From Bacteroidales bacterium (GTDB lineage: Bacteria > Bacteroidota > Bacteroidia > Bacteroidales > UBA932), in contig JAGBCS010000005.1 in assembly GCA_017937885.1 (NCBI GenBank), forward strand, positions 1 to 35,800: a stretch of DNA of 35,800 bases, read 5' to 3'. Shown here piece by piece: positions 11,919-31,850 of the stretch; position 1 is the stretch's first letter; the number at the start of each line of letters is the position of its first letter. Made by a program: the position numbers and the translations under genes. The notes below the pieces were generated by a model. The model had not been told where the DNA came from and did not search any database. It saw nothing but the letters and a program-made list of their open reading frames with translations.

Positions 11919-11921
11919 CGT

Positions 11922-15620: not shown

Positions 15621-15646
15621 CTTAGTCAAAATTTATTCGTCGGATG

Positions 15647-15776: not shown

Positions 15777-15799
15777 CTCTCACTAAAACCAGACTGAAT

Positions 15800-16693
15800 A
15801 TGATTCTTGACAAGAAAATCCCGGGATATCTCCTGGGAAAATACCAGCTTATAGGCACAGTGACCTTCTCTGTCCTGTTTGCCATCGTGTTCCTCAACAT
15901 ATACATACCGTTCTCAGATACAGCGTGGTTCGCTCTGGGCGATTCCGTCCTGTTCATCAAGACTCTGGTCTATGTCGCAATAGCGATCTTCACACTGATC
16001 TGCAGCAGGACACTCATGTACAAGTCGAAGAAGCTCTTCCACATGAACTACCTTGCGTACATCATATGGTGCATTCTTGAAATAGTTACGGTATGCGCCC
16101 TCTACACGTGGCTGACGGAAGGTATTCCGACTCCGCACGATGAAAGCACACTTAAAGTCTTCGGCCGCTCACTTCTGTATGGAACGATAGCATTGGGGGT
16201 TCCGTACCTGATATCGGGAATGTATTTCGCGATCAACGACAAGAACAACACGATAAGGCTGATGAGCTATGAAAACGTGGTGACTGACGAGCCTGTCCGT
16301 CCCGAAAGCCATATGCACAAGATAACCCTCTTCGACAACAGCGGATCTCTCAAGCTTTCGCTCAACCCTGACAACCTGTATTACATCGAATCAGATGACA
16401 ATTACATAAAGGTCTGGTACACAGACAGCAAGGGGGAGCTCAAACAGTACATGCTGCGTTGCCGTCTCAAGACAGTGGAAGAGAGCTTCAAGGGCAGCGG
16501 ACTCGTGCGATGCCACAGGAAGTATATCGTGAACATAAAAAAAGTGGCAATGCTGCGCAAGGAGAGCGAAGGTTATGTGCTCGACCTTGACAATGAAGCA
16601 ATACCACCGATTTCAGTCACAAAGACCTATACAGACACGGTGCTCAGCCATTTTACCGAGCAGTCGCCTCTGCTGGAGCCTATAGAGGAATAG
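15800..16693 (+). CDS. Membrane-anchored LytTR-type transcriptional regulator
   Basis: A 297-aa protein with four hydrophobic helices in the first 140 residues or so, then a linker, then a LytTR DNA-binding domain (about 185-285). LytTR signs are NLYYIESDDNYIKVWY, the RCRLKTVEESF helix and GLVRCHRKYIVNIKKV. This layout, with no receiver domain, is common in Bacteroidota and suggests that the membrane part senses a signal and the LytTR domain binds DNA. I chose ATG 15800 because it follows a well-formed promoter; an upstream extension to 15704 would start before it. The last 14 bp overlap, on the opposite strand, the last gene of the SusCD operon. Its target is unknown; fabH and that operon are the neighbours to test. 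Confidence 0.87.
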   Translation: MILDKKIPGYLLGKYQLIGTVTFSVLFAIVFLNIYIPFSDTAWFALGDSVLFIKTLVYVAIAIFTLICSRTLMYKSKKLFHMNYLAYIIWCILEIVTVCALYTWLTEGIPTPHDESTLKVFGRSLLYGTIALGVPYLISGMYFAINDKNNTIRLMSYENVVTDEPVRPESHMHKITLFDNSGSLKLSLNPDNLYYIESDDNYIKVWYTDSKGELKQYMLRCRLKTVEESFKGSGLVRCHRKYIVNIKKVAMLRKESEGYVLDLDNEAIPPISVTKTYTDTVLSHFTEQSPLLEPIEE

Positions 16694-17129
16694 AGTCTAC
16701 GCGGACAAATTTCTGGACGAACGTCTCGTCGTCCTTGGCTATCCATGTCATTTCATTTTCCGTCAGATTCCTGACAATATAGCGATGCGCCCAGTCACCG
16801 CTGTCGTGGTCGTAGTTGCCACGGATTACAGCTCCGTATTCCGGATCGGTCTCGATGAAATAGGATCCGGTCAGGATGTGCGGCACATCCTTGAAGGTGT
16901 CAAGATTCTGATACATGGTATATGTGCGGTCATTTCTGACGATATCGAGATACACATATGTACCTTCAGCCAGAGCGGTTCCGTTCCACTCTGCCAGCTC
17001 CCATGTACCGGAAATGTTATGCGCATTCACTTCCAGGTATGTCACCGGTTGCGAAAGGTCATTGGGATCACAGGCTGACAGCATCAGAACTGCAGCCATG
17101 GCGATCAGCAAGGTTATAATTCTGTTCAT
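16680..17129 (-). CDS. Small lipocalin-like lipoprotein
   Basis: A 149-aa lipoprotein: signal helix, lipobox LSAC with Cys20, then CDPNDL. The body has the pattern of a small beta-barrel, with SGTWELAEWNG near 40-50, alternating strands, and a final MTWIAKDDETFVQKFVRVD. This fits lipocalin-like domains common in Bacteroidales, so a small hydrophobic ligand is possible, but no ligand can be named. It is the last gene of the SusCD operon, 4 bp after the DUF1573 gene, and its 3' end overlaps the convergent LytTR gene by 14 bp. Confidence 0.7.
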   Translation of the reverse strand: MNRIITLLIAMAAVLMLSACDPNDLSQPVTYLEVNAHNISGTWELAEWNGTALAEGTYVYLDIVRNDRTYTMYQNLDTFKDVPHILTGSYFIETDPEYGAVIRGNYDHDSGDWAHRYIVRNLTENEMTWIAKDDETFVQKFVRVDSIPL

Positions 17130-17133
17130 ATTC

Positions 17134-17913
17134 TTATAATTTCATTTTCACTTTAATTGACGACTGACGTGGAGGAACTCCAAGTCCTTTAATCACTACA
17201 GGCACTTCAGCCTTTTCACCACCCTTCTCGGGATCGTATGATATGACTATCTCACCTTCCTCATCAGGCCCTGTCATCTCAGGACGCGTCGTAAAGTCCA
17301 GGCACTCAGGCAGAAACACCCTTTCACATTCAAGAGACACCGGCACCTTTCCGATATTGACGAAGCGTATCTTCTCAACGGCCTTTTCACCTTTGATGAA
17401 CATCACTTCCGCTCTCCTGAGACGTATATGACCCATCTGCACAGGATACTCGTCAGACAGATCAGAGCCGGCAGTGACATCAACACTCAAGCGAAGTACT
17501 GCTGCAGGATCATCTCCATCCTGCGTGTATACGAATATCTTCCTCTCGAAACGTCCCGAGTGTCCTTCCGGGTCATATCTCACGACGATCTCGGTTGTTT
17601 CGGATGGTCTGAGAGATGTCCTCGAGCAGGTCGCTGTCACGCAGGAGCATGTCGTGGTCAGTCTCTTTATCTCCAGAGGGCCGTCCCCGGCATTAGTCAG
17701 TCTGTATCTGTAGACGGACGGAGCATCATCCTCGCTCATCTGTCCTGCCTTAATATGCCTTGTATCGAAGGCAAGGGCGGCGGAGTCGCGCGACAGACGC
17801 GGCGAAGCCACCTTTGCCAGTTTCTCCGCTGACACCGTTCTGATCTGCGCACTGCAAGTCAGGACCGATGTCAGAGCAAGGCAGGCCGACAGTATGAAAG
17901 AGAGGTATGACAT
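17134..17913 (-). CDS. Periplasmic DUF1573-family protein
   Basis: A 259-aa protein with a signal peptide (cleavage after about residue 23, CSAQ-IRT). The residue before the Cys is Thr, so a lipobox is unlikely. Residues about 65-150 match the DUF1573 pattern: YRLTNAGDGPLEIKRL followed by TTTCSCVTATC (Cys89, Cys91, Cys96) and VRYDPEGHSGRF. A second similar beta-sandwich (about 180-258) with IRFVNIGKVPVSLE and ISYDPEKGG suggests a tandem repeat. These are ASH/Ig-like folds, probably protein-binding. The start overlaps the stop of the subtilase gene by one base (TAATG), so the two are translationally coupled. Confidence 0.8.
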   Translation of the reverse strand: MSYLSFILSACLALTSVLTCSAQIRTVSAEKLAKVASPRLSRDSAALAFDTRHIKAGQMSEDDAPSVYRYRLTNAGDGPLEIKRLTTTCSCVTATCSRTSLRPSETTEIVVRYDPEGHSGRFERKIFVYTQDGDDPAAVLRLSVDVTAGSDLSDEYPVQMGHIRLRRAEVMFIKGEKAVEKIRFVNIGKVPVSLECERVFLPECLDFTTRPEMTGPDEEGEIVISYDPEKGGEKAEVPVVIKGLGVPPRQSSIKVKMKL

Positions 17914-19940
17914 TACAGCCAGCCGTTTGAGTCTGCTCCCTTACGGACAGTTATGAAGAACTTGTCTGTGCGGCTTCCTGTCACGGAAGCCTCTGTCTGT
18001 CCAGCTGACAATCCCTTGATCTTCAGCACATTCCCCTGCATTTCCGCCGCGGCTACAGATGTATCTGCCACCGTCACGGTAAAGCTGCTTCCTTCCATAT
18101 ATACGGAAGGAAGGACGTTGACTTCAGCCCCTTCCTCAACTAAGATGTTAGGAAAGGTCATTTCGACTCCTGATCCTTCGACGGCCTTGAGAAGGGCATA
18201 GGCATTGACCTGGCCTGAACCCATCTTGCCTTTAAAGTCTCCCATGTCTATCTGCTGCATCGGGGCCGACTCATACAGGTCGATGACATATTTCTTATAC
18301 TGCTTGACACCATGCATATAGCTGTCGATCGGAGTCGCTGTCTCATACAGAAGATTCTTGAAATCTTCGGCCTTGAAGTGTCTCCTGAGCTGAGCGGCAT
18401 ATGAAAGTCCCAAAGCTGCTACACCCGAAACATGAGGACATGCCATGGAGGTTCCCTCCATATAGCCGTATCCGCTCTCGCTCACATGGACCGGAAGAGT
18501 CGAAAGTACACATCCGATCTCACCGATCGCATGCGTCTCGTCTACGTAATCCCAATAATAGTCCTGATCTCCGCCTGGAGCGCTTATAGTCGTTCCTGGG
18601 CCATAATTGCTGTACACAGCCGGAGTGAAGTCCGCAGCTGTCGCTGCAACAGCCACAAAGTCAGGATAGGCTCCCGGATAGCTGGCAGCAGGAGCCGCCT
18701 CATTGCCTCCGGCAAAGATCACAAGTCCGCCATCAATCACACCGTCAGGAGAACCCGCATTGTGCAGGAAATAGTCAAGAGCCTTTCTCTCGAGCACATT
18801 GTAAGTCTCCCACTGTTCGTCTGTCGCATACTGAGGAGTCCATTCATATGGATTGGCTGCACCGGAGATGTAGCCCCAGCTGCACTGAAGGATGACGGCT
18901 CCGTTGTCTGCCGCATACTTTATAGCCCTCACTTCCTCGAGAACTGTTCCGGCATAGGCTCCGGAGAAGATCTGACATGACATGATCTTTACGCCCGGCA
19001 CCGAACCGTTTCCTCCGGCGATCGAGCTGATACCCACGCCATTGTTGTTTGCAGCAGCGATTACTCCTGCCACATGTGTTCCATGTCCTGTATCGTAGAG
19101 GCTGTTCACCGAAATCACGCCATGATCACCCACAAAATTATATCCATGTATGTCACCGGCATATCCGTTTCCGTCGCCGTCCTCATGAGATCCCCAGACT
19201 TCACCTTCGTTTACCCACATGCTGGTATGAAGATCCGGATGTTTCACGTCCACGCCTTCATCCAAAACAGCGACAATGACTGACGGGTCTCCGGTTGTAA
19301 GTTCCCATGCCTTTTCCACCTGCACGTCCGCATCCTTGACAAACTTCGTAGGGCGAAGGTCGCCGTTGTTCACAAGATGCCACTGATCGCCAAGGAGAGG
19401 GTCATTGAATGCTCCGGAAGCACGTGAAGCCAGTTCGGCAAGTCTTTCAGAAGTCAGCGGAGTCGCCTTCTTTTCCGTAGCCCTCTTGAGTGTACGGTTA
19501 TACTCGACCCTGCTTACCTCGCCTAACTGCGCAAGATCAGCGGCCACGTCCTCTATAGAATGCTTCTCATCAAAACGGACCACATACCACAGATGAAGTC
19601 CCTCTTCGCGAGCCTTGGCCTCCGTACGGATATCCACAGGGAACACTCTCTCGATATGATAGCCGTCAACAAGATCCAGGATTTCGTCAACACTCAGGAC
19701 ACCGCTGCGCGTCATCGGCGTTGCAGGGCCGCTCTTGGTAAGACCGGCCTTGTCAAGGATCTCGCTCACGCGGGCATCGAAGCGAACAAGAAGCTGTCCG
19801 GGAACGGCATCAGCCGACATCTGTGGAATTGCCACATCATCCGGTTTCCCATCATTTGACCTAGGGGCATCCACAGAACAGGCTGCCAGTCCTGCCAGCA
19901 GAACCAGCGCCACTATATATAATGTCTTTCTAACCATCAT
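17913..19940 (-). CDS. Lipid-anchored subtilisin-like (S8) serine protease
   Basis: A 675-aa protease, the only enzyme of the SusCD operon. The lipobox is LAAC with Cys21. A propeptide-like region spans about 45-160 (PGQLLVRFDARVSEILDKAG, then a beta segment). The catalytic domain has Asp227 in VAVLDEGVD, His286 in GHGTHVAGV, oxyanion Asn413 in FAGGNEA and Ser498 in GTSMACPHVSG, so it should be active. The last 80 residues or so look like a bacterial Ig-like (BIG2-type) domain. It lies 2 bp after the upstream LRR gene and overlaps the DUF1573 gene by one base. It probably acts at the cell surface or periplasmic face; cleavage of a protein ligand for import is inferred from context. Confidence 0.9.
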   Translation of the reverse strand: MMVRKTLYIVALVLLAGLAACSVDAPRSNDGKPDDVAIPQMSADAVPGQLLVRFDARVSEILDKAGLTKSGPATPMTRSGVLSVDEILDLVDGYHIERVFPVDIRTEAKAREEGLHLWYVVRFDEKHSIEDVAADLAQLGEVSRVEYNRTLKRATEKKATPLTSERLAELASRASGAFNDPLLGDQWHLVNNGDLRPTKFVKDADVQVEKAWELTTGDPSVIVAVLDEGVDVKHPDLHTSMWVNEGEVWGSHEDGDGNGYAGDIHGYNFVGDHGVISVNSLYDTGHGTHVAGVIAAANNNGVGISSIAGGNGSVPGVKIMSCQIFSGAYAGTVLEEVRAIKYAADNGAVILQCSWGYISGAANPYEWTPQYATDEQWETYNVLERKALDYFLHNAGSPDGVIDGGLVIFAGGNEAAPAASYPGAYPDFVAVAATAADFTPAVYSNYGPGTTISAPGGDQDYYWDYVDETHAIGEIGCVLSTLPVHVSESGYGYMEGTSMACPHVSGVAALGLSYAAQLRRHFKAEDFKNLLYETATPIDSYMHGVKQYKKYVIDLYESAPMQQIDMGDFKGKMGSGQVNAYALLKAVEGSGVEMTFPNILVEEGAEVNVLPSVYMEGSSFTVTVADTSVAAAEMQGNVLKIKGLSAGQTEASVTGSRTDKFFITVRKGADSNGWL

Positions 19941-19942
19941 GT

Positions 19943-21574
19943 CTATTCCTGTGTTTTGTTAGGGTTATACTTCTTGTTGACGTAATGCTCGTAATAATAG
20001 TCCAAGCTGGTCGGTTCATTAGAGAAACCGGCATTGACGCCGTCTCTGGTCTTTCCTTCCTGCGAGAAGATGAGTGAATAAGGCAACCACATGTCAAGCT
20101 TAGGATGATATAGGAGCCAGTCAGGAAGCTTTCCGGTCAACCTGTTGAAGTTGATAGCGAAGAAGTTCGTGTTAGGAAGCACCTTCGGCAGTCCGATCAG
20201 AATGTCCGGAAGAGTATCCGTCGCATGCACTTCTTCAGATGTCCATCTTGGAATACCCGGTTCATCTTCAAGATCAGGCAACTGTCCCTGAAGATAGTTC
20301 ACGGAAAGTCGAATCGTATCAAGAGCAGACCACTTGAGAAGTCTTGTAGGAAATTCGGGTTCGTCAATGAAGCCTCCGACATTCTCTCTGGTATCATTGC
20401 TCAGATCATAGATCGAATTACGCTGATTTGCATTGAGAATCAGGGAATGAAGCTTCGGGAAGTTCTCCGGCGTCAGGATATCAGGAATCTCCTGAAAGCA
20501 GTTGGAACTTAAATCCAGATACTCGAGATTCTTGAGATTCACAAAATCAGGATGAAGGCTGACCAGCCCATAGGCACCTATAGTGAGACGCTTGAGCTGA
20601 GTAAGCTTTGTAATATACTCACCGGTATCAAGACTCTTGAGGAACTGATTGGCATTGGAATAGAACGCAATCTCCTCTGCTGCAGTAAGATACTGAACCT
20701 CATAAGGAAGGGGCTCCTTTGTGTTGAACATAAAGAACTGCACATATCTTACACGTCCCTTATTCGGGCCATCCTTCCATATTGCGACGTTATTCCAATG
20801 TTCCATCTTCTCAGACGTATCGAACTCGATGAATCCTCCGAGGGCACGGCTCACTGCCAGAAGTGCAAGAGAATCGCCTTCAGGTGTGTTCTCCGGTATA
20901 GGAAGTGCAGCCTTCTGCACTACCTTCAGACCATCCTGGCGTCCCATCTCGACCATCTCCTTAGGCTGGAATGTCACTTCGGCAATCCTTTCCTGCGCAC
21001 GTGAATTCACCTTCCAGTCAAAGCGTACCGTCGAACGGCGAGGTCTGGCTCCCCTGTCCAGAGTAAGGTCCGACTTCTTATATGAAAGCCAGTTCTCAGC
21101 TCCGCCTGGAAGCACGACGTCATAATCCACATTAGAAATGATCTCGACCTCGAAAAACCTTGATTCGTATTCAGCATAATCCGCCACATCTACCGATGTC
21201 TCCTCAAGAGATATCTGATATGGGAATCCTTCCTGCACAATGGTAAAATCCTGTCTTTCATCTGACGATGACAGACTCTGAATTCGCACTGCGCCACTTC
21301 TGGAGCTGCTTAAAAGGGTCGAATCCACACTGACCTTACACTCGGCAGTTCCGCGTCCATTGGCCGGCGATACCGATATCCATGGTTCTTCTGTCATGAC
21401 CACCCAGTCTCCCGGCGAAGTCACCGTAACAGTCTTCACACCACCGGCCGGACCGATTCCGACCGATCCGTCCTCAGATCCGGTAATGACTCCGAACGAA
21501 ACCTTTGCCTCATCCGGTCCACAGGCGGAAACAAGAGCAGCAGCCGCTGCCAATATCATCATGTATTTCTTCAT
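19943..21574 (-). CDS. BACON and leucine-rich-repeat lipoprotein
   Basis: A 543-aa lipoprotein (lipobox VSAC, Cys18). Two BACON-like beta-sandwich domains seem to follow: about 35-115 (DWVVMTEEPWISVSPANGRG, ending FTIVQEG) and about 118-225 (ending LKVVQKA). A cap-like segment with DSLALLAVSRALGG (about 230-245) precedes leucine-rich repeats to about 500, e.g. LKNLEYLDLSSNCFQEIP and FPKLHSLILNAN. BACON domains are common N-terminal modules of Bacteroidetes surface proteins; LRRs bind proteins or peptides. It probably displays a ligand-binding surface. It lies 21 bp after the other LRR lipoprotein. Confidence 0.82.
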   Translation of the reverse strand: MKKYMMILAAAAALVSACGPDEAKVSFGVITGSEDGSVGIGPAGGVKTVTVTSPGDWVVMTEEPWISVSPANGRGTAECKVSVDSTLLSSSRSGAVRIQSLSSSDERQDFTIVQEGFPYQISLEETSVDVADYAEYESRFFEVEIISNVDYDVVLPGGAENWLSYKKSDLTLDRGARPRRSTVRFDWKVNSRAQERIAEVTFQPKEMVEMGRQDGLKVVQKAALPIPENTPEGDSLALLAVSRALGGFIEFDTSEKMEHWNNVAIWKDGPNKGRVRYVQFFMFNTKEPLPYEVQYLTAAEEIAFYSNANQFLKSLDTGEYITKLTQLKRLTIGAYGLVSLHPDFVNLKNLEYLDLSSNCFQEIPDILTPENFPKLHSLILNANQRNSIYDLSNDTRENVGGFIDEPEFPTRLLKWSALDTIRLSVNYLQGQLPDLEDEPGIPRWTSEEVHATDTLPDILIGLPKVLPNTNFFAINFNRLTGKLPDWLLYHPKLDMWLPYSLIFSQEGKTRDGVNAGFSNEPTSLDYYYEHYVNKKYNPNKTQE

Positions 21575-21595
21575 ATCTTATCTCCTCCTGTTCAA

Positions 21596-24214
21596 TTAAT
21601 TCATCATGTAGTCACAATTTCTGATATCCTGAGTCTTGTCGTATATCAGATAATAGGCTCCGACCTGATATGCGTAGCAGATGTCTGTGGCATCGAATAT
21701 GATCTCAGGATTGTCGCTGATATCCAGGTAATAGATGAGAGTAGATATAGTATCCTCGATCTTTCCAAGATTGTTCGAACCGATGTAGAAGCCTCGGAGA
21801 CCTCTGTGATTGTATAGTCCCACAGGCCACTCGGAAAGACATCTCTCGCCGTTCTCATCACGCTGTCCTCTGATCGCATAGACTGTAAGATACTGACTGT
21901 CGAGCGGTTCCCAAGGGAAATTTGAGAACTGGTTATATGACAGTTCGACGCCATACAAATACGGCATATTGCCGGCATGCATATCGCCAGGCAGGTCCTT
22001 CAGGTCATTATATGAAAAGTCAAACGATTGAAGGAACACGGCATTAGGATAAGTAAAGCAGTCTTTCGGGAACTCCTTGAGGTTACATCCTCTGAAGTTG
22101 ATGTTCATGATCTTCGAGTCTGATGTCTTGAGTTCTATAGGATAGACTGTCAGCTCAGGATTGTTGGCTATTGTAAGGGTCTCGACATATACTCCCTTGA
22201 AGTCCTTTCCGTTCTGAAAACGACTGATATGGTTGTATGAGAAGTCAATGGAAACCACGGCATAGAGCGAGCCTGCATCGAATATGTCCGGGAACTCCGT
22301 GAAATTGTTGTTCCTGACTGAGAATGTCTCGGCATCCTCCATATAACAGAACACACCCTTTTCATCCACAGGGAAAGATGAGAGCTGGTTGTTGTCAAGA
22401 TATATCTGAACCGGCTTGATGTCATTGCCCCATGCTTCCTCGATCGTATGGATCCTGTTCGATGAGAAATCCATCATACCGAGCTTCTTCATGTTCCTGA
22501 TCTCGGCAGGCACGACCTCAAGGTTATTGCTGTTCATATACATAATCTGGATTTTCTCCTTCGATGGTCCGGTAGCCACTGCCTTGAATCCCTTGAGAAT
22601 CTCTTCAGCACTCCACTGTCTGTTATTTCCTATATTAAGGGATATAAGCTCCGGCATCATTGCAAGAGCCATCGGGAACTGAGTCATCTTAGGGCAGTTA
22701 TATACCTCTACATCAGTACATGAAGTAAGGTTTGCCAATGATTCAGGAAGCGTTTCTATCTCACTGTTCGCAATGAAAAGCTGCACCAGCTTGGTCAGGT
22801 TTCCAATCTCATCCGGCAGGCTCTTAAGACCATTGTTGATCTGGCCTGAGATCATATCCATCGGCCTGATCCTCATGCCGCCTGTTTTCCTGTCAATGAT
22901 ATCGGTTTCTGAAAGATTCTCATACAGAGAAGTTTCCGGAATAGTCTTGCCATGCTCGGCATATGCACGCGCAATCGGCTCGGACATCTGTGTTACCGGA
23001 TGCATCCGGTTCAGGTACTCCCTATGTCTTTCCATCCTGCGTGCTGTTCCTTTACCTACAGCCGCTGTAGGATCATACGTCACCAGATTTATGTCATTGT
23101 GCGAGCCTAGATACAGCTCGACCATCTCGGTAAGCTGGCCTAAGGCCGCAGGCATGTCTCCATAGAAGCCGAAGTCACTTATATTCAGAAGAGCCACTCG
23201 GCCGTTTGCATGCAGCGATACTCCCGGCTGGTCTCCCCAGAGATCGGGATCCTTGTTGAAGTTCCAGTTTGTTCCGCGAGGATAGTTTTCTCCGACATAG
23301 TACCACTCCTCTCCATGCAGGGCCTTCCAGATTTCATAAAGAGCATAATAGTCCTTTATATACTCGTCCGTCTGATCCAGTTTCACCGGCACCTCCACCT
23401 CAGTCGTATTGTTGTCATATATAGTAAACGGAACATTCAGCCTCGAGTTGACCTCAAGAAGATAATTCCTCTCGTCGTATACCATATAGGACTCCAAGTT
23501 GTACTTGCCTGCCCTCAAGGAAAGGAGTGTATCACATACAAACGAAGAAGTCTGATATCCGTCCTCCACTCCGTCATCAGTGAAATGGATGGAGAAATCG
23601 GCCGGGAGCTTCTCAAAAGTAGTGAGCACACCTGCATCAGACCTGACACCAATAGTCACGGTATTGATGACGTCAAAAGTATATTCATTGTCCGCCTTAG
23701 TCTGAGCGAACCCGGACATGTCCTTGACAAGAGAGAACCTGACGCTTCCTCTCTCAACAACATCCGCGAGAAGGTCATGTATCTGAAGGCCTCCCGGAAT
23801 GACTTCAAAAGCAGACTGTTCCGATGCTGGCGTGCCTTCATACACCAGTTCATCAACCTTGTCGTAAAGGGAAAACATCACGACCTGATAGTTTCCTGCC
23901 AGAAGCTTCAGTTTGTCGCTTCTCAGACCGAATTCAGCCGCCTTATCGTCGGACGAATTCAGCACAAGCGTCTGTGACATTATGTTTTCTCCATATCTCA
24001 AGGTAACCTTGATCTTGGATACATCCTTCAGATAATCCAACTGCGTCACAACGGCCTTGGTAGCATCATATGATGCAGCTTTGTAAAGCTTGAACTGAAC
24101 ATATCCATATGCATCTTCCCTATAGTCAAGCTCCTGAATGTCAGCGCAACCGGCAAGAGTCAGAGCGATGGCCATAAGAAGGCATCGGACAATCCCTATC
24201 AATTTCAATCTCAT
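21596..24214 (-). CDS. Large leucine-rich-repeat lipoprotein (DUF4458-like N-terminus)
   Basis: An 872-aa lipoprotein (lipobox LAGC, Cys23). The N-terminal 250 residues or so form two related beta-rich modules, resembling the DUF4458 region found before LRRs in Bacteroides proteins (recognised from memory). An LRR N-terminal cap follows near 290-330, with YALYEIWKALHGEEWYY and NWNFNKDPDLWGDQPGVS. About 20 irregular repeats run to the end, e.g. LPDEIGNLTKLVQLFIANS and LPESLANLTSCTDVEVYN. LRR surfaces usually bind proteins. It is the fifth gene of the operon, 24 bp after the 677-aa lipoprotein. Confidence 0.85.
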   Translation of the reverse strand: MRLKLIGIVRCLLMAIALTLAGCADIQELDYREDAYGYVQFKLYKAASYDATKAVVTQLDYLKDVSKIKVTLRYGENIMSQTLVLNSSDDKAAEFGLRSDKLKLLAGNYQVVMFSLYDKVDELVYEGTPASEQSAFEVIPGGLQIHDLLADVVERGSVRFSLVKDMSGFAQTKADNEYTFDVINTVTIGVRSDAGVLTTFEKLPADFSIHFTDDGVEDGYQTSSFVCDTLLSLRAGKYNLESYMVYDERNYLLEVNSRLNVPFTIYDNNTTEVEVPVKLDQTDEYIKDYYALYEIWKALHGEEWYYVGENYPRGTNWNFNKDPDLWGDQPGVSLHANGRVALLNISDFGFYGDMPAALGQLTEMVELYLGSHNDINLVTYDPTAAVGKGTARRMERHREYLNRMHPVTQMSEPIARAYAEHGKTIPETSLYENLSETDIIDRKTGGMRIRPMDMISGQINNGLKSLPDEIGNLTKLVQLFIANSEIETLPESLANLTSCTDVEVYNCPKMTQFPMALAMMPELISLNIGNNRQWSAEEILKGFKAVATGPSKEKIQIMYMNSNNLEVVPAEIRNMKKLGMMDFSSNRIHTIEEAWGNDIKPVQIYLDNNQLSSFPVDEKGVFCYMEDAETFSVRNNNFTEFPDIFDAGSLYAVVSIDFSYNHISRFQNGKDFKGVYVETLTIANNPELTVYPIELKTSDSKIMNINFRGCNLKEFPKDCFTYPNAVFLQSFDFSYNDLKDLPGDMHAGNMPYLYGVELSYNQFSNFPWEPLDSQYLTVYAIRGQRDENGERCLSEWPVGLYNHRGLRGFYIGSNNLGKIEDTISTLIYYLDISDNPEIIFDATDICYAYQVGAYYLIYDKTQDIRNCDYMMN

Positions 24215-24238
24215 ATATAAAACCGAATTATATTTTTA

Positions 24239-26272
24239 TTATTCGACATCAAGAACACATATAAGAGTTAAGACCACCTTATTATTCTTGTCGTAGAACA
24301 GCACATTCGCTGTCTCAGAACCGGATGATGCACCATCAAGGAAGGCCATAGCTATATCGACGGTTCCGTCAAAAGTACCCACGTACGAATTCACAGCGTC
24401 ATCCCACTCAAGCAGTTCTCCGCCTTCGTCACTGTATTTTCCATCAACAGACACGGCCCTTACCTTGCTCCATGGATTGACTGTGAACCTCATTGACATT
24501 TCAGGCACTTTAATCTCCAGAGCTGTATCAGTTCGGGTATATTTCAATATCTTGACAGGGCACTGGTTTTCCTTGTATGCTTCATATGTAGGTCCGGCAG
24601 TCACTTCAACAAGAGTGGCACCTGCAGCAGCCGCAGCATCCTTGTCGACAAAGTCATCACTTGCATCAACAGTCACATCGACGACCTCTTTCTTCTCCTT
24701 GACATAAGTACAATGAACCACAGCAAGATTCTGTCCCTTCGAATCCTTGAAGACGATGTATCCTTCAGCCTTTTCACCACTGATGTTATCTTCAATCATA
24801 TCGATCACGCCGTAGTTGTCACCGCTCAGAAGGGTAAAGCCAAGCCAGAATGACTCCAGTGCATCTCCTGTAACCTCCTTCTTGTCAGATCCGTAAACAG
24901 AATATGAAGCGAAAGGAGTGGTCAGGCGCATATATGCCTTCTCACGTGAATATGACTTGGTGTAAGAAAGTTCGTATGCATACGGAGCATTTCCAAAGGC
25001 TGTAAGAAGGCTTGAATCAGAAGACTTTCCGAAGGTCACACCTGCAGCTTCCATCACTTCCATGCTTTCATCCGGAGTAAGATAGTTGTCCGGAAGGGCT
25101 GCCTGGGTAATAGCTACAGCATATCTTCTGAACTCATCACTGAGACCTGTCATATCCGAAGTGAAGAGTTTCGAGCAGTCATCACCGAACGTGGCCGGAA
25201 GGAAGAAGACGGCTGCCTTACGCTCCGCACCGTCATTGATGGTCACTGAGACAGAAAGGCCTCTAGTCTGAAGGACAGGTGCTCCAGACGTATTGTCCCA
25301 CACATCGACCTCCAGGTTAATCCATGATGGAGTATCGACCATCTTATACTTGCCGTCAACCACCTCTGCAACAGCAACTCTAGAAGCGGAAGGGCCATAT
25401 ATCCAGCCCAGAATCGCCTCGTTCGAATATGTATCGTTACCCTTGTAGTAGCCTGCATAATCATATTCCACTGAAGAATAGCCATTGAACGAGTATGAGA
25501 ACCTGTCTTTGCACCCAGGGATGCTGATGCCATACTCCTTCACAGTCTCTGTAGCTGATTTGAAGACAACATTTCCGGTCTCATTATCAAGAGGGAGTTC
25601 GGACGGTACGCTGTACACATTGAAGTTTACGACACCTGTCTTCACCTCAGGGATGTCTGCACGAGCCCAAACAGGGAACTCTGCAGTCCATTCAAAATTA
25701 GATTCAACCTTTACAGGAAGCGCAAAGCCGTCCTCCATATCCGACCACATCAGGTCAATTGACTGAAGTTCAACTGTTTCATAGACGATTCCTGAGCCAT
25801 CTTCCGCATATACCAGAGCGCCGTCTGCGACCTTTGCAGCATATGCCGTAAGAGTCCTTGACTTCGCCGGACGCATATACTTGGCTATCACCTTTGACTC
25901 CCCACCCATCGTGAGAGTGACCTCGCATGAACGGTTCTTGTCGAATTCCTCGGTTTCCGATACACCGATGCTGACTGTAACAGCCGACTCGGAAGCAGTT
26001 CCCTTCACCTTGTCTGACTTCATGCCTGAGTCAAGAAGCCAGAACCATTGGAGATTGTCCGTCGGAACAGAAAGTTCCCAATCCATGTTTGGAGTAAAGG
26101 TCAGTGAAAGTGTAGATCCCGGAGCGACATTACTGTTCTCAACTGCAGTCGGGAATACCGGGGTGACCTTCTGGTCCGGTTCCGGATCAGGTTCAGGCTT
26201 TGAGCATGCTGCCAATACTGCGCAACCCACCATCAGGGCTGCGAAAGATCTTATTATATCCATTGTTTTCAT
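24239..26272 (-). CDS. Surface lipoprotein of unknown function (DUF5003-like?)
   Basis: A 677-aa lipoprotein with lipobox LAAC (Cys23), then a proline/acid-rich linker (KPEPDPEPDQK) typical of Bacteroidetes lipoproteins exposed outside. Residues about 35-135 look BACON-like (MDWELSVPTDNLQWFW, ending in a VTLTMGG strand). A second such module may span about 180-255 (ESNFEWTAEFP). The centre and C-terminus are beta-rich without a known motif. I associate this layout loosely with DUF5003 but cannot confirm it. No catalytic motif is seen. It sits between the Calx-beta-like lipoprotein and the LRR genes, so a ligand-binding role at the SusCD complex is inferred. Confidence 0.75.
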   Translation of the reverse strand: MKTMDIIRSFAALMVGCAVLAACSKPEPDPEPDQKVTPVFPTAVENSNVAPGSTLSLTFTPNMDWELSVPTDNLQWFWLLDSGMKSDKVKGTASESAVTVSIGVSETEEFDKNRSCEVTLTMGGESKVIAKYMRPAKSRTLTAYAAKVADGALVYAEDGSGIVYETVELQSIDLMWSDMEDGFALPVKVESNFEWTAEFPVWARADIPEVKTGVVNFNVYSVPSELPLDNETGNVVFKSATETVKEYGISIPGCKDRFSYSFNGYSSVEYDYAGYYKGNDTYSNEAILGWIYGPSASRVAVAEVVDGKYKMVDTPSWINLEVDVWDNTSGAPVLQTRGLSVSVTINDGAERKAAVFFLPATFGDDCSKLFTSDMTGLSDEFRRYAVAITQAALPDNYLTPDESMEVMEAAGVTFGKSSDSSLLTAFGNAPYAYELSYTKSYSREKAYMRLTTPFASYSVYGSDKKEVTGDALESFWLGFTLLSGDNYGVIDMIEDNISGEKAEGYIVFKDSKGQNLAVVHCTYVKEKKEVVDVTVDASDDFVDKDAAAAAGATLVEVTAGPTYEAYKENQCPVKILKYTRTDTALEIKVPEMSMRFTVNPWSKVRAVSVDGKYSDEGGELLEWDDAVNSYVGTFDGTVDIAMAFLDGASSGSETANVLFYDKNNKVVLTLICVLDVE

Positions 26273-26293
26273 ATTTATCCGTATTTAGTCGTT

Positions 26294-27199
26294 TTACATA
26301 CCTTCCTCTATTTTAAGGCGCTCGGCCTCCTCGTCGCTGATCCACTCCATGATATTGTAGAAGTGTCCGACCGTTCCTACGCTCTGTCCGAGATTCTCGA
26401 CATACATCTCTGTCCATACGTACAGATAGCTGCCGCAAGGATAGAATATGGAGTCGTAATAGAAACTGTCTGTAACAAGAATCTTATCATCTCCGTGAGC
26501 CGTGCCGAAAAATGAAGCCTCATCACTTGCGACCTGTCCTTCTTCCATCGTCACGAAAGGCTTCATAGGGTCTTCCGGATGGAAGGTCATTGTCACATCA
26601 TAGCCGTCATTGATCCAGTCATGACAGATTATCATGTTCTCCTCGACTGGATGCTTTTCAGTGCGTATCAGCCTCTGGTACGAACCTGTAATGCTGTAAT
26701 CGTACAGGAACATGGAAGTAAGTACGCAGTATCCCGTGAAGTCGTTGATGTCGAACGGGCAGCTCTTCATAAGCACGGCCTTTGTCTGCTTTCCGTACAA
26801 AGGCATCTCGAGAGCATCATTCATCACGAGCTGGAGCCTGAATCCAAGAGCATCTGTATCTCCAATATTGTCATAACAGCCATGCACGAGCACATCAGCA
26901 CGGGTCTCTCCGGCCTTGATTGTGATCGTGTTTGACTGAAGGCGGTAGTGGACGTTCTCGATGGCATCACTGCCTTTGTCGATGATCTCCACACCAAAGG
27001 TACGGTCATAATCGCGAGTCACCGTCGACACGACCGGTATGCTGAAATACTCGACATCCTGCTGCACCGGATAGGTTGCAAGAGTGTCGGCAAACATGAC
27101 ATATTCGGCATCGGAATATGTCACATAACTCTCATGGCAGCTGCCTAATGACAGGACAGCCACAAGAGGAAGTGCTATATATTTCAAAATCTGCTTCAT
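26294..27199 (-). CDS. Calx-beta-like surface lipoprotein (DUF4843/DUF4984-type)
   Basis: A 301-aa lipoprotein (lipobox LGSC, Cys21). Residues about 45-145 look like a Calx-beta-type sandwich, with YFSIPVVSTVTRDYDRTFGV and IKAGETRADVLVHG. The rest, from DINDFTGYCVLTS onward, is beta-rich with lipocalin-like strands. Genes of this kind (DUF4843, DUF4984) often follow susD in Bacteroidales loci; assignment to one of the two is uncertain. It is the third gene of the operon, 12 bp after susD. Confidence 0.75.
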   Translation of the reverse strand: MKQILKYIALPLVAVLSLGSCHESYVTYSDAEYVMFADTLATYPVQQDVEYFSIPVVSTVTRDYDRTFGVEIIDKGSDAIENVHYRLQSNTITIKAGETRADVLVHGCYDNIGDTDALGFRLQLVMNDALEMPLYGKQTKAVLMKSCPFDINDFTGYCVLTSMFLYDYSITGSYQRLIRTEKHPVEENMIICHDWINDGYDVTMTFHPEDPMKPFVTMEEGQVASDEASFFGTAHGDDKILVTDSFYYDSIFYPCGSYLYVWTEMYVENLGQSVGTVGHFYNIMEWISDEEAERLKIEEGM

Positions 27200-27211
27200 A
27201 TATCATTGTCT

Positions 27212-28723
27212 TTATCTGTTGCTTTCATTAGGCTGGATCTGCGAGCCCGGAGCCTCGAGTTCATGCTTCGGTATCGGCCAGACAAACAATGGATCGCCGG
27301 CCGCCACGGCAAGTGAGCTGCCTTCCGCCTGGCTCTGGGACTGAGGTGTGCGCTCGAAACCCTTTCCCCAGCGCTTGAGATCATGGAGACGGAAGCCCTC
27401 CATATAAAGTTCGCGGACACGCTCGTCCGAGATTGTTTCAAGCCAGTTTGATTCTGTCACACTGATATTTCCTCCGTTTGTATATCTTGTCTGGCGAAGT
27501 GCCGTAAGGTCAGCCGAGCCGGCATTGTACTGACCCTTCCTGCAGTAAGCCTCTGCGCGGATAAGATACTGTTCCGCAAGACGAAGAGGCTTCGGCATGT
27601 TCACATGATATATAAGATATGACATAAGTTCCGCATTGCCATAATATTTGACAAGCAGAGGCCATGTCAGCCCATGAGAATAACCTGTCGGGAGATTGGC
27701 AAAATATGCATTATATCTTCCGTCCCCGGAGCCATACAGGTCAAGCACCCACTGAGCCGGAACATAGTCCGGATAGTAGTATGTGAAATCATTGTTGAAG
27801 TTCAGGAAGACCTGTCCCTGAGGAGCTCCATAAGAAGTCGGGGTATAGCCTATTCTCCATATGTTCTCATACGAAGTGTCATTCGTCCACAGGTAATCAA
27901 GAAAGGTCTGTGACGATGTCACGTATGCCCTTGCGGTGGCCAGAGTAAATGCATCCGACTCTATCAGTACGGTTGAGTGTTCTATCGCAGCATCCCAGTC
28001 CTGCATGTACAGGGCCGTTCTGGCATGAATGGCATGAGCGGATGCATGAGTGAAATATGGCGCATCGAAATAGTCGTTCTCACTGTCAAGAAGTTCCTCG
28101 GCCTTCGCAAGATCTGCAAGGACAAATTCATATGATTCCTTCAAAGATGCCCTTGTGACAGGCTCTTCCTTGAAATAGCTCGAACGGAGCACGACACCAA
28201 GTTCGCTTTCAGCTGTCGCCGGATCATAAGCCTTGCAGAAACATTTGATCAGTTCGGAATATGCAAGTGCCCTCGCACAATAAACCTCTCCGGTATAATA
28301 GTCAAGGATCTGTATCATATCACCGTCCGTAAGACTGTCGCGAAGCTTTTCCACCTGGTCAAGATAGAAGTTGCATCGTCCGATAACTCTGTAGAGAGAG
28401 GCATAGACGGCTTCTATCTCAGCGTTGGTGGAAAGTATGTCCCACTGCCATATATTGCCATAGGTATTGGAATTTCCCTGAACGGCATACACCAGATCGG
28501 ACTGGATATCAGGTACAAGCGTAAGGTAGCCGCTGTAAAGGCCGCTGCTCATATATGCGGCATAGATGCCGGTCACGGTCTGCTCCGCATCCTCGAATGT
28601 CATCATTCCCTCATCTTCCAGGATGAAATCGCCAGGATTCTTCTCCAGACACGAGGTAAGACAGAAGACCGCCGTCAGCACGACTGCCGCCTTCAAGATT
28701 ATGTTATATATATTCTTCATCAT
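27212..28723 (-). CDS. SusD/RagB-family surface lipoprotein
   Basis: A 503-aa lipoprotein (lipobox LTSC, Cys25) forming the lid of the SusC pore and taking part in ligand capture. SusD signs are the N-terminal TPR-like helices, the central YCARALAYSELIKCF repeat, AYVTSSQTFLDYLW, and the C-terminal AEQYLIRAEAYCRKG and ALRQTRYTNGG. The end, ELYMEGFRLHDLKRWGKG then PIPKHELEA, is typical of the family. Length is normal. It lies 12 bp after the SusC gene. The ligand cannot be read from sequence; in P. gingivalis RagB the ligand is peptide. Confidence 0.93.
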   Translation of the reverse strand: MMKNIYNIILKAAVVLTAVFCLTSCLEKNPGDFILEDEGMMTFEDAEQTVTGIYAAYMSSGLYSGYLTLVPDIQSDLVYAVQGNSNTYGNIWQWDILSTNAEIEAVYASLYRVIGRCNFYLDQVEKLRDSLTDGDMIQILDYYTGEVYCARALAYSELIKCFCKAYDPATAESELGVVLRSSYFKEEPVTRASLKESYEFVLADLAKAEELLDSENDYFDAPYFTHASAHAIHARTALYMQDWDAAIEHSTVLIESDAFTLATARAYVTSSQTFLDYLWTNDTSYENIWRIGYTPTSYGAPQGQVFLNFNNDFTYYYPDYVPAQWVLDLYGSGDGRYNAYFANLPTGYSHGLTWPLLVKYYGNAELMSYLIYHVNMPKPLRLAEQYLIRAEAYCRKGQYNAGSADLTALRQTRYTNGGNISVTESNWLETISDERVRELYMEGFRLHDLKRWGKGFERTPQSQSQAEGSSLAVAAGDPLFVWPIPKHELEAPGSQIQPNESNR

Positions 28724-28735
28724 TTTCCGTAATCT

Positions 28736-31678
28736 TTAGAACATGATATCCAGACCGAAGGTAAACTGGCGTGACATAGGATACTGAGCAGCATAGACAT
28801 TGGTAGTTCCTTCCGGATCGAGGCCGGAGAAGTTGGTGAATGTCAGCAGATTCTGGCCCTGGACATACATTCTGACTCCTCTGATGAATCCTGTCTTCTT
28901 CATGAGATCCTGAGGAAGAGCATACGCAAGCATGAGATTCTTCAGACGAAGGAAGGATGCGTCCTCGAGAAGACGGCTGTCAAACTGAGTATACACGCCG
29001 TGACGAGGAATATCTGTCACATCACCTGGCTGCTTCCATCGGTTCAGCAGGCGGCGTGACTGGTTGTATGTCGCAAAACGTCCGTTCGACTCATCGAAAT
29101 AACGGTCATTGTTTATCATCCACCGGTCGCCTACCCAGCTGAACTGGGCGCTAAGGCTGAGGCCGAGCCAAGAAAGTGTCGTTCCAAAACCTCCCTGCCA
29201 TGGAGCAAAGTAAGACTTTCCGACAAGCACCTTGTCCTCGTCTCGGAGTTCGTTAGTGATGTTTCCTTCCGCATCATACCAGAGCGCATCTCCATTAGCA
29301 GGATTTACACCGGCATAGCGGTTTACATAGAACTCGCCGAGAGGATGACCGACAACAAGCTTGGTACTTGTATTTGCCGTCTCATACTCATCAACTCCGT
29401 TGTAAAGTTCCACTATCCTGTTGTGGTTGTAGCCTACATTGGCATTCACTTCCCATCGGAAGTCCCTGTATGCCAAGACTGTGGCATTCACATTCAGTTC
29501 CACTCCCCTGTTCACCATCGCACCGACATTGTCCCACACATAGCCGTATCCGTTTGACTCGGCGTATGACTTGGGAACAGACATCAGCATATCTGTAGTC
29601 TTCTTGTTGTAGAACTCGAGATCCACGTTAAACCTGCTGAAGAAGCCGAGATGGAAGCCGAGATTCGTCGTCCATGTGCTCTCCCACGTCAGGTCCTCGT
29701 TGCCCGGCTGCACCGGAGCGACTCCCGAATCGCCGACATAATCATATCCTCCTCCGATAAGGGCAAGATGCTCATAATTAGGGATTTCAGAGTTGCCTGC
29801 GGTTCCGGAACTGAAAGAGACCTGAGCCATATTCAGCCAGTCGGCCTTTCCTTTCATGAAGTCCTCGTTACGCAGGTTCCACATCATTCCGACAGAACCG
29901 AAAAGTCCCCAGCGGTTGTTCCTTCCGAAGCGTGACGATCCGTCCGTACGAAGCGCTCCCTCAAGGTAATACCTGTTCGAATAATTGTATTCACCGCGAC
30001 CGAAGAACGAAACACGCGAGTAGTCGGACGTCGAGGTGCTTCCCCACGAAGTCGCTCTGGTTGCTGTAGAAATATCTGTCAGTTTGTCGTTTGTCTGACC
30101 GGCTGTGCTCACGCTGAAACCTTCACTGTGGTAATCCTGCCACTCATGACCGAGCAGAAAGTTGAAATCGTGAATATTGTCTATATCAAAGCGATAAGTC
30201 AAAGTGTTTCCCCACTGAAGGTTGAGACCGTCGCTTGAGCTTCTTGCCGCAGATCCTTCTCCCTGATTAGGCAGATAGCTCGGGAAAGACTGGCTGAAGC
30301 CTGTCGTATGAGAGAAGTCGGCCGAGAACTGGGTACGGAACACGAGGTTGCGATACAAGGTCAGGTCAGCAAAGACCGTAGAAAACACCTTGTACTTCTT
30401 GTATGCCACCGGATTGTTTTCAAGCCACTCCAGAGGATTCTGTCCCTGGCCTGTCCACGAACCGTCATCGATAGAGGCCAGCGAGCCATCAGCCTTGTAT
30501 GGATTCCAGTATGGAAGCATGAAGCGTGCTGCGGAAATCGGAGTCACAAGGGTATAGGCTCCTTCGTCCGCCTGACGGATGTTCTGCACATTGAACATTG
30601 TATTCGTGCCCATCTTCAGCCAGTCGCACATCTGCTGCTCGAAATTGAACCTCATCGAATAACGCTCGAACTGAGAACCTGGCGCAATACCGTCCTGGTT
30701 GTAGTATCCCCCTGAGAAATAGTAATTTGTCTGATCGGTCGCTCCGGAAACAGCAAGTTCGTGGCTCTGAAGCATGGCCTTGTTGTTGAAGACAGCCTCC
30801 ATCCAGTTGACATCCGTCTTTGACAGCAGTTCATAATTCTGTCCGTCCGTCATTCCCGTCTCCTTCTCATACTGGATTCTCTCCTGCGTGTTCATGAGGT
30901 CCCAGTTTCCATGAGCTATCGATGACACTCCCATCTGCATACGGTAATTGATGTTCGGGCGGTCGATGTTACGTCCCCTCTTTGTCGTGATGACAATCAC
31001 ACCATTCGCTGCACGTGCTCCGTAGATCGAGGTCGAAGACGCATCCTTCAGGACTGACATGCTCTCGATGTCCGCAGGATTGATCGTATTGAAGTCTGAA
31101 GCGGAAATGGCAACGCCGTCAAGAATATACAGAGGTGCGGTTCCCGAATTGATGGAGTTCGTTCCACGTATCGTCATTGTAGCCGAAGCACTTGGCTCAC
31201 CCGTGCTGGACAGGACGGTAAGGCCTGCCACCTGTCCCTGCAGAGCCTGGTCGAAAGCAGCGGATGCCGTATTCTCCAGTTTCTCTGACTTGACGGTTGA
31301 TACAGAGCCGGCAACAGTTCCCTTCTTGCGGACACCATATGCAATAACGACGACATCGTCTATCGTCATGGTCTCAGGCTGCATCACGACATTGTGAGTG
31401 AACGATGCCACCTGAGGTACGACAACCCTTTCCTCATTGAATCCGATACTCGAGAAGACGAGTTCGGTGCCGGGAGTCACCTCTATGACGTAATCACCGT
31501 CCAGAGATGTCGTGACTCCGATTCCGGGGCCGGCCATCACAGCCACACCGATCATCGGCAGGCCGTCATCTGCAGATGTCACTACACCTGAGACTTTCAC
31601 AGGGGTCTGCGCATACAGCGCAAAGCCTGTTACGGCCGACAACAGAGTTGTCACAATCAGTTTCAAATATTTTTTCAT
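28736..31678 (-). CDS. SusC/RagA-family TonB-dependent outer-membrane transporter
   Basis: A 980-aa outer-membrane transporter with a signal peptide (ending near ALYAQ, residue 24). A carboxypeptidase-D-regulatory-like domain is at about 27-110 (VSGVVTSADDGLPMIGV). Then come the SusC-type TonB-box region DDVVVIAYGVRKKG and the plug, with IRGTNSINSGTAPLYILDG and SIYGARAANGVIVITTKRG. A 22-strand beta-barrel follows and ends in an aromatic residue (FGLDIMF). No N-terminal signalling (STN) domain is seen, so regulation through an ECF sigma/anti-sigma pair is not expected. It is the first gene of a nine-gene unit and has a good promoter. At 980 aa it is within the family range. Confidence 0.95.
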   Translation of the reverse strand: MKKYLKLIVTTLLSAVTGFALYAQTPVKVSGVVTSADDGLPMIGVAVMAGPGIGVTTSLDGDYVIEVTPGTELVFSSIGFNEERVVVPQVASFTHNVVMQPETMTIDDVVVIAYGVRKKGTVAGSVSTVKSEKLENTASAAFDQALQGQVAGLTVLSSTGEPSASATMTIRGTNSINSGTAPLYILDGVAISASDFNTINPADIESMSVLKDASSTSIYGARAANGVIVITTKRGRNIDRPNINYRMQMGVSSIAHGNWDLMNTQERIQYEKETGMTDGQNYELLSKTDVNWMEAVFNNKAMLQSHELAVSGATDQTNYYFSGGYYNQDGIAPGSQFERYSMRFNFEQQMCDWLKMGTNTMFNVQNIRQADEGAYTLVTPISAARFMLPYWNPYKADGSLASIDDGSWTGQGQNPLEWLENNPVAYKKYKVFSTVFADLTLYRNLVFRTQFSADFSHTTGFSQSFPSYLPNQGEGSAARSSSDGLNLQWGNTLTYRFDIDNIHDFNFLLGHEWQDYHSEGFSVSTAGQTNDKLTDISTATRATSWGSTSTSDYSRVSFFGRGEYNYSNRYYLEGALRTDGSSRFGRNNRWGLFGSVGMMWNLRNEDFMKGKADWLNMAQVSFSSGTAGNSEIPNYEHLALIGGGYDYVGDSGVAPVQPGNEDLTWESTWTTNLGFHLGFFSRFNVDLEFYNKKTTDMLMSVPKSYAESNGYGYVWDNVGAMVNRGVELNVNATVLAYRDFRWEVNANVGYNHNRIVELYNGVDEYETANTSTKLVVGHPLGEFYVNRYAGVNPANGDALWYDAEGNITNELRDEDKVLVGKSYFAPWQGGFGTTLSWLGLSLSAQFSWVGDRWMINNDRYFDESNGRFATYNQSRRLLNRWKQPGDVTDIPRHGVYTQFDSRLLEDASFLRLKNLMLAYALPQDLMKKTGFIRGVRMYVQGQNLLTFTNFSGLDPEGTTNVYAAQYPMSRQFTFGLDIMF

Positions 31679-31710: not shown

Positions 31711-31740
31711 CAAAGATATACTTTTTCGAGTTTAAAACAA
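31711..31740 (-). promoter_or_regulatory. Promoter of the SusCD operon
   Basis: Minus-strand TATCTTTG (31718-31711) fits TAnnTTTG. A TTG at 31740-31738 stands 19 nt upstream as the -33 element. The box is 32 bp before the SusC ATG. Spacing and sequence both fit the Bacteroidota promoter. Confidence 0.58.
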
Positions 31741-31811: not shown

Positions 31812-31850
31812 CACACAATGATTTACGTATAGTTGAAACAAAGCAGATTT

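What the first reader, a model, noticed from the sequence alone, without database searches (positions are those of the whole stretch)
16680..31678. Nine-gene SusCD operon with protease and LRR lipoproteins: candidate protein/peptide-capture system
SusC, SusD, seven further genes and no carbohydrate-active enzyme run without a break (gaps 2-24 bp or overlaps). Six of the seven non-SusC/D proteins carry a lipobox, and the seventh is a periplasmic DUF1573 protein. The only enzyme is a subtilase with an intact Asp227/His286/Ser498 triad. Two LRR proteins and BACON-like modules offer protein-binding surfaces. Together this reads as surface binding, cleavage and import of a proteinaceous ligand, analogous in part to RagAB peptide uptake of P. 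gingivalis. I know of no characterised locus with exactly this set.
Basis: partly seen in the sequence, partly recalled or inferred. Interest (0 to 1): 0.75.

Follow-up and report, generated by a model that had tools for sequence, protein, structure and literature searches.

The report
Conserved nine-gene protein-capture SusCD operon
Gut Bacteroidales carry a nine-gene surface machine, kept in the same order in many species, that most likely grips a protein, cuts it and pulls the peptides in; it has no sugar-cutting enzyme, and a version appears to sit in the laboratory species Bacteroides thetaiotaomicron, where it can be tested.

Summary
In detail: nine same-strand genes (16680-31678), gaps 2-24 bp or a 1-bp overlap, encode SusC, SusD, DUF4984, a BACON-like lipoprotein, two LRR lipoproteins, an S8 subtilase, DUF1573 and a lipocalin-like lipoprotein. 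It is one conserved locus: all nine lie in order in 60 of 80 named relatives, the other 20 being cut by contig ends. A promoter-like element recurs only before susC. The triad is invariant in 61 of 61.

Peptide import is the best reading, untested. RagA is the nearest solved SusC, unlike for two other SusCs of this genome; SusD does not single out RagB.

New here: (a) five related loci lack the protease and carry a third LRR protein, so the SusCD-LRR core is separable; (b) the fourth protein is hypervariable, 43% identical where SusC is 85%; (c) S8 and the lipocalin-like lipoprotein recur as neighbours (22 of 31 Lipocalin_4 hits in ten chosen genomes), suggesting a cognate partner or inhibitor. 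The locus seems to match BT0206-BT0214 of B. thetaiotaomicron; the only functional report found is a BT_0212 mutant.

The parts
28736..31678 (-). SusC/RagA-family TonB-dependent transporter, 980 aa; CarbopepD_reg_2 and plug, no STN domain hit
   Evidence: TIGR04056 784 bits, PF07715, PF13715; best solved match RagA 571 bits, next 361
27212..28723 (-). SusD/RagB-family lipoprotein, 503 aa
   Evidence: PF07980, PF14322; best solved matches 3kez 72 bits, 3l22 64, 8ypt 57.5, RagB 56.5
26294..27199 (-). DUF4984 lipoprotein, 301 aa
   Evidence: PF16372 153 bits; no solved relative by sequence
24239..26272 (-). Hypervariable BACON-like lipoprotein, 677 aa (protein four)
   Evidence: BACON 22.3 bits, below cut-off; BACON in 9 of 25 members; mean identity 0.43 where SusC is 0.85
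21596..24214 (-). LRR-A: DUF4458, LRR_10 and leucine-rich repeats, lipoprotein, 872 aa
   Evidence: full-length match to solved LRR protein 4ecn, 487 bits
19943..21574 (-). LRR-B: BACON domain and leucine-rich repeats, lipoprotein, 543 aa
   Evidence: BACON 35 bits, LRR models below cut-off; weak matches to solved LRR chains
17913..19940 (-). S8 subtilase lipoprotein, 675 aa; D227/H286/S498
   Evidence: PF00082, PF16361; triad invariant 61 of 61
17134..17913 (-). DUF1573 protein, 259 aa, N-terminal signal-like stretch without a conserved lipobox
   Evidence: PF07610 85 bits; lipobox not conserved
16680..17129 (-). Lipocalin-like small lipoprotein, 149 aa
   Evidence: Lipocalin_4 in 13 of 16 orthologues; lipobox Cys 61 of 61
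31711..31740 (-). Promoter-like element TTG-N19-TATCTTTG before susC
   Evidence: Read; TTG-N(18-22)-TANNTTTG before susC in 49 of 77 loci and before 0 of 683 internal gene starts
31782..31812 (-). GC-rich hairpin between the upstream fimbrillin-like gene and susC, possible terminator of that gene (limits read by eye)
   Evidence: Sequence, fold; not listed by the scan

Best explanation
A cell-surface protein-capture and peptide-import machine. Lipoproteins anchored in the outer membrane (a conserved LRR pair, a hypervariable BACON-like arm, DUF4984) dock on a RagA-like SusCD transporter and hold a proteinaceous ligand; the lipid-anchored subtilase cuts it; SusD closes over the fragments and SusC imports oligopeptides with TonB energy. 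The lipocalin-like lipoprotein is probably a partner of the protease, perhaps a cognate inhibitor that protects the cell surface; DUF1573 is a secreted, probably periplasmic accessory. Shown: gene set, linkage and order, intact triad, lipoboxes, one conserved promoter-like element, RagA as nearest solved SusC. Inferred: surface location, complex formation, protein substrate, cleavage, import, inhibition.
For: Nine genes in order in 60 of 80 named loci, 20 cut by contig ends, and in further loci of other genomes. Promoter-like element before susC in 49 of 77 loci, 0 of 683 internal starts. SusC: RagA 571 bits, next 361, whereas two other SusCs of this genome prefer 8aa4 (399 against 246; 568 against 293). 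Of 11 inspected loci with the next most similar SusCs, three carry peptidases: two S8-profile proteins (L235), an S8 (L241), M16 and M6-like (L234); no glycoside hydrolase among the 20 ORFs scanned. Triad invariant in 61 of 61. Partial co-variation (half-sample means) is highest for LRR-A/LRR-B 0.50 and SusC/SusD 0.42, a known kind of complex, then SusD/LRR-A 0.28, which are not adjacent. Lipocalin_4 lies just downstream of an S8_N domain in 22 of 31 hits.
Against: No substrate, expression or binding data. SusD is not closest to RagB. Five related loci lack the protease, and L205 shows none in 2.1 kb to its contig end, so cleavage is not obligatory. Eight of the 11 inspected RagA-like neighbourhoods showed no peptidase among the ORFs scanned; L232 neighbours an efflux system. 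One other S8 of this genome follows a GH2 glycosidase gene (L093). For the inhibitor idea: S8/lipocalin partial co-variation is only 0.18 and the lipocalin's strongest partner is DUF4984 (0.26); 7 of 23 other S8 genes, both further S8 genes of this genome included, have no such neighbour. A B. thetaiotaomicron BT_0212 mutant still cleaved the one protein tested (PMC6282197 passages). Only three of the SusCs of this genome were compared with solved structures.
Confidence: 0.6

Rival explanations
1. Glycoprotein route: the protease strips protein from a host or dietary glycoconjugate and SusCD imports glycopeptides or glycans, with glycosidases supplied by other loci.
For: One S8 paralogue of this genome follows a GH2 gene; protein four is as variable as a glycan-binding surface protein might be (that comparison is recalled); SusD does not point to RagB.
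Against: No carbohydrate-active enzyme family among the nine proteins; RagA is the nearest solved SusC; no glycoside hydrolase among 20 ORFs near related SusCs.
Confidence: 0.16
2. Cofactor or iron piracy: the LRR and BACON-like arms seize a cofactor-carrying protein, the protease frees the cofactor where present, and SusC imports it.
For: Protease-free loci with a third LRR protein show that capture without cutting is possible; genes of the B. thetaiotaomicron locus appear in an iron-response table.
Against: The values in that table are for lower expression with P of 0.08-0.57 as I read its columns; the SusD lid suits oligomers (recalled); nearest solved SusC is a peptide importer.
Confidence: 0.12
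3. Adhesion or surface processing: LRR lipoproteins bind a host or bacterial surface protein and the subtilase trims or sheds it; import by SusCD is secondary.
For: Fimbrillin-like genes lie upstream; exposed strand positions of LRR-A are conserved, as for one fixed partner.
Against: The promoter-like element and hairpin separate the fimbrillin-like gene from susC; SusC and SusD head every locus that reaches that far.
Confidence: 0.08

Closest known systems
BT0206-BT0214 region of Bacteroides thetaiotaomicron (function unstudied as far as found)
   Same: Listed annotations fit place by place: BT0207-08 SusD and DUF4984, BT0211-13 BACON protein, S8 peptidase, DUF1573 (PMC10434189 table passage). 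4ecn, which I recall as BT_0210, matches LRR-A over its length.
   Different: That genome was not fetched; BT0206, 0209, 0210 and 0214 are placed by inference.
RagAB peptide importer of Porphyromonas gingivalis
   Same: SusC nearest to RagA among solved SusCs; SusD follows SusC directly; proteolysis supplies peptides to RagAB (PMC11817032 passages).
   Different: RagAB is a two-gene locus fed by gingipains encoded elsewhere (the second part recalled); here protease and LRR proteins are in the operon, and SusD is not especially RagB-like.
Glycan utilisomes (SusCD with surface enzymes and binding proteins)
   Same: SusCD plus lipoproteins in one operon; variable protein in the place of a surface binding protein.
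   Different: No carbohydrate-active enzyme; protease and LRR proteins instead.
KLIKK protease-potempin pairs of Tannerella forsythia
   Same: Surface or secreted protease gene beside a small lipoprotein gene (PMC4404884 and PMC7296668 passages).
   Different: There the lipoprotein gene precedes the protease, here it follows; no sequence relation was found; inhibition untested.

Membership tests
SusCD nutrient-uptake locus | Adjacent SusC-type transporter and SusD-type lipoprotein | tested here: met
   TIGR04056, PF07980, PF14322; 12 bp gap
SusCD nutrient-uptake locus | Further surface lipoproteins in the same operon | tested here: met
   Lipobox Cys conserved 61 of 61 in six further proteins; surface exposure itself not testable here
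Polysaccharide utilisation locus | At least one carbohydrate-active enzyme in the locus | tested here: not met
   None among the nine proteins by Pfam or NCBIfam
RagAB peptide importer | SusC closest to RagA | tested here: met
   571 bits, next 361; two control SusCs differ
RagAB peptide importer | SusD closest to RagB | tested here: not met
   RagB 56.5 bits, behind 3kez 71.7, 3l22 64.2, 8ypt 57.5; so the locus is filed as RagAB-like, not as RagAB
RagAB peptide importer | Peptides bound and imported | not testable with these tools
   Needs structure or mass spectrometry; contact residues were not compared
S8 subtilase | Asp/His/Ser triad in a subtilase domain | tested here: met
   D227/H286/S498 and N413 in 61 of 61; PF00082 136 bits
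Protease-inhibitor pair (potempin-like) | Small lipoprotein gene next to the protease gene | tested here: inconclusive
   16 of 23 other S8 genes are followed by a match to the lipocalin profile, 22 of 31 Lipocalin_4 hits follow S8_N; in this operon DUF1573 lies between the two
Protease-inhibitor pair (potempin-like) | Inhibits the neighbouring protease | not testable with these tools
   Needs an enzyme assay

The most novel reading that the evidence does not exclude
A distinct, widespread class of protein-directed SusCD machine in gut Bacteroidales: a conserved RagA-like SusCD plus LRR core that comes in a digesting form (S8, DUF1573, lipocalin-like self-inhibitor) and a non-digesting form (third LRR protein), the two sometimes in tandem, with one hypervariable surface arm shaped by ligand change, immune or phage pressure.
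Probability: 0.4. Interest if true: 0.75.

Novelty: new variant of a known kind. Interest (0 to 1): 0.6.

Why it matters
SusCD loci are read by default as glycan loci. A conserved version with a protease and LRR arms instead of glycosidases would show the same machine re-tooled for protein, a gut nutrient whose uptake by Bacteroidales is little mapped outside Porphyromonas. Its apparent presence in B. thetaiotaomicron makes it testable with existing genetics. The S8-lipocalin pairing, if enzyme and inhibitor, would be another kind of self-protection for surface proteases next to potempins.

Tried and rejected
A profile search of solved chains with the lipocalin alignment gave nothing convincing (best E 0.0098); protein four and DUF4984 gave no match among solved chains. 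A viral-contig scan with LRR-A found no relative. The iron idea was set aside because the values seen are not significant. Diversifying selection on the LRR face was considered and rejected: exposed strand positions of LRR-A are more conserved than the rest of the repeats (0.84 against 1.23 bits, fraction 0.0014 of 5000 shuffles as low; LRR-B same direction, 0.088). S8/lipocalin co-variation was tested and does not stand out. RagA itself was not fetched, so peptide-contact residues were not compared.

Selection effects and dropped rows. The 80 loci are the best by LRR-A similarity out of 281. Three genomes give two loci each there. The ten genomes were chosen because most have several S8 genes; the lipocalin model does not hit the window's own gene at genome level, two of the ten genomes have no hit, and three second pieces of S8_N genes were left out of the script, which used 46. 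Two of the 23 S8 rows (L095, L096) are near-copies. The promoter count takes all loci with room before susC, protease-free ones included; TANNTTTG alone occurs in 60 of 77 and in 37 of 683 internal starts. My ORF caller takes the first start and can over-extend genes. L084 has the order S8-lipocalin-DUF1573. L166 has LRR-A in two pieces. G064, one of the 8 genomes with DUF4458, shows no operon gene (L033).
Full report
WHAT IS THERE. The window is contig C28 of an incomplete Bacteroidales genome, 1.5 Mb in 84 contigs, 62% complete. Its closest named relatives by LRR-A are gut MAGs, many titled goat, sheep, deer, buffalo, cattle or yak, some named Alistipes, Rikenellaceae or Tidjanibacter. Nine - strand genes run from SusC (31678) to a lipocalin-like lipoprotein (16680) with gaps of 12, 12, 21, 24, 21, 2, -1 and 4 bp. 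Domains are in the parts list. The subtilase triad is D227/H286/S498. SusC has CarbopepD_reg_2 and plug domains and no STN hit, so sigma/anti-sigma signalling of the usual kind is not expected (inference).

IT IS ONE CONSERVED OPERON. A scan of named genome contigs with an LRR-A alignment found 281 relatives and kept the best 80. In 60 of 80 all nine genes lie in this order; in the other 20 of 80 the visible part is a consistent piece that runs into a contig end. L027 (another family), L028 and L029 (same genus) have all nine. Of ten further loci fetched from family f59, L201, L203, L208 and L209 have all nine by profile; L202, L206 and L207 have an ORF of 511-650 aa that my profile does not match in place four; L204 is cut; L205 and L210 are treated below. 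Of 11 loci fetched from genus g175, nine have all nine genes, L260 is cut at its 5' end, and L268 is the protease-free form. LRR-A relatives were found in 11 of 151 genomes of family f59 and 12 of 61 of genus g175. Independent of LRR-A: 77 of 101 genomes of the window's genus have some S8 relative; in 19 of the 100 others I fetched this S8 orthologue, and 17 of those 19 loci show the LRR genes beside it, the other two being cut at the contig start. In a search of 295 order genomes with SusC, the six matches of 56% identity or more (the window's own included) all lie in LRR loci; the next fall to 41%. Across the order the locus is sparse: DUF4458 in 8 of 393 genomes.

PROMOTER. TTG-N(18-22)-TANNTTTG, which matches the Bacteroidales promoter consensus as I recall it, lies before susC in 49 of 77 loci and before 0 of 683 internal gene starts. 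In the window it is at 31711-31740, after a hairpin at about 31782-31812. This supports one transcript starting at susC, apart from the fimbrillin-like gene upstream.

CORE AND MODULE. Five loci (L030, L031, L032, L210, L268) read SusC-SusD-DUF4984-place four-LRR-A-LRR-B-third LRR, with no S8, DUF1573 or lipocalin-like match and 2.9-7.9 kb left after the third LRR gene. Pfam confirms LRR in the third LRR protein of L030 and L031 and BACON in place four of L031; place four of L030 is an unmatched 584 aa ORF. In a SusC tree, the four such genomes included (rows L210, L031, L214, L215) form one clade beside the nine-gene clade, within a fully supported LRR-linked clade (quick tree, SH-aLRT support only; L268 not included). 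Genome G655 has both forms in tandem, about 2 kb apart. L205 shows no S8 in its last 2.1 kb yet lies inside the nine-gene clade, perhaps a recent loss or an assembly fault.

WHICH SUBSTRATE. SusC is nearest to RagA among solved SusCs (571 bits, next 361). Two other SusCs of the genome show the reverse (399 against 246, 568 against 293); the rest were not tested. SusD does not single out RagB (56.5 bits, behind 3kez, 3l22 and 8ypt). SusCs of 35-41% identity in the order were followed into 14 loci: L235 has two S8-profile proteins, the one scanned bearing a T9SS tail, and a PorV-like gene; L241 a BACON protein and an S8 with a T9SS tail; L234 M16 and M6-like peptidases. Twenty ORFs in 11 of the 14 loci were scanned; none was a glycoside hydrolase, and eight loci showed no peptidase among the ORFs scanned, L232 having an efflux system instead. 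Against a protein-only reading, one further S8 of this genome follows a GH2 gene (L093). Peptide import is the best but untested reading.

HOW THE PARTS EVOLVE. Where SusC is 80-95% identical (237 pairs), mean identities are SusC 0.85, SusD 0.75, DUF4984 0.78, protein four 0.43, LRR-A 0.68, LRR-B 0.65, S8 0.72, DUF1573 0.50, lipocalin-like 0.60. Protein four is hypervariable over its length and ranges from 506 to 983 aa; BACON is detected in 9 of 25 members. By contrast, exposed strand positions of the LRR-A repeats are more conserved than the rest of the repeats, so LRR-A probably binds a conserved partner or ligand. Partial correlations of distances (half-sample means) are highest for LRR-A/LRR-B 0.50 and SusC/SusD 0.42, then SusD/LRR-A 0.28. 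Neighbouring genes may share recombination tracts and pairs of loci are not independent, so this only suggests contacts.

THE SMALL LIPOPROTEIN. The last gene lies near Lipocalin_4 (13 of 16 orthologues). Of 23 other S8 genes of the genus with room, 16 are followed at once by a small ORF matching the lipocalin profile (15 by the lipobox count that the call prints); DUF1573 was not matched in those loci at the cut-off used. In ten genomes chosen for several S8 genes, 22 of 31 Lipocalin_4 matches lie just downstream of an S8_N domain; 46 S8_N genes were considered, so about half have such a neighbour. KLIKK proteases of T. forsythia are preceded by small lipoprotein inhibitors (passages), so I propose a cognate inhibitor or chaperone. 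Against: no relation to a solved inhibitor, partial co-variation with S8 of 0.18 and a stronger one with DUF4984, 0.26, and no such neighbour for the two other S8 genes of this genome.

WHAT IS KNOWN. PMC10434189 (passages) lists BT0207-08 as SusD and DUF4984 and BT0211-13 as BACON protein, S8 peptidase and DUF1573; the numbering fits this operon, and 4ecn, which I recall as BT_0210, matches LRR-A. The values there have P of 0.08-0.57 as I read the columns. PMC6282197 (passages) reports that a BT_0212 mutant, among others, did not lose EspB cleavage. Searches of the held library for domain names, locus tags and gene combinations listed no functional study; one search listed 15 of 64 papers, searches listed 20 of 275 and 20 of 28, and most subscription papers and preprints are not held. 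The RagAB and BT2263-64 structure papers were not held; what I say of them is recalled or seen in passages of PMC11817032.

VERDICT. Real, conserved and worth testing; a new variant of the SusCD uptake locus rather than a new kind of system.

Noticed in passing
window 31851-34955 and 34942-35781 (-): DUF4906/pilus-N fimbrillin-like lipoprotein gene and a DUF4493-DUF6359 gene upstream of the operon; a DUF4906 gene is upstream in L072 and a DUF4493-DUF6359 gene in L078.
   Followed up: partly
window 15704-16693 (+): LytTR-domain regulator gene, convergent with and overlapping the last operon gene by 14 bp.
   Followed up: no
L092 (G000:C26) 9213-18674: A second SusC-SusD-836 aa unknown-S8 locus in the same genome; related SusC-SusD-unknown-S8-small lipoprotein loci recur in the genus (L090-L109).
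   Followed up: partly
L267/L268 (G655:C2): Protease-bearing and protease-free forms of the locus in tandem, about 2 kb apart.
   Followed up: partly
L084 2562-5495 (-): Order S8-lipocalin-DUF1573 instead of S8-DUF1573-lipocalin.
   Followed up: no
L093 (G000:C7) 6924-11517 (+): S8 peptidase gene directly after a GH2 glycoside hydrolase gene, with no SusC or SusD match in the stretch fetched.
   Followed up: no
L263 18066-19601: An extra LRR-B-like gene after the lipocalin-like gene of a complete nine-gene locus.
   Followed up: no
window 8460-10547 (-): 695 aa protein with MORN repeats.
   Followed up: no
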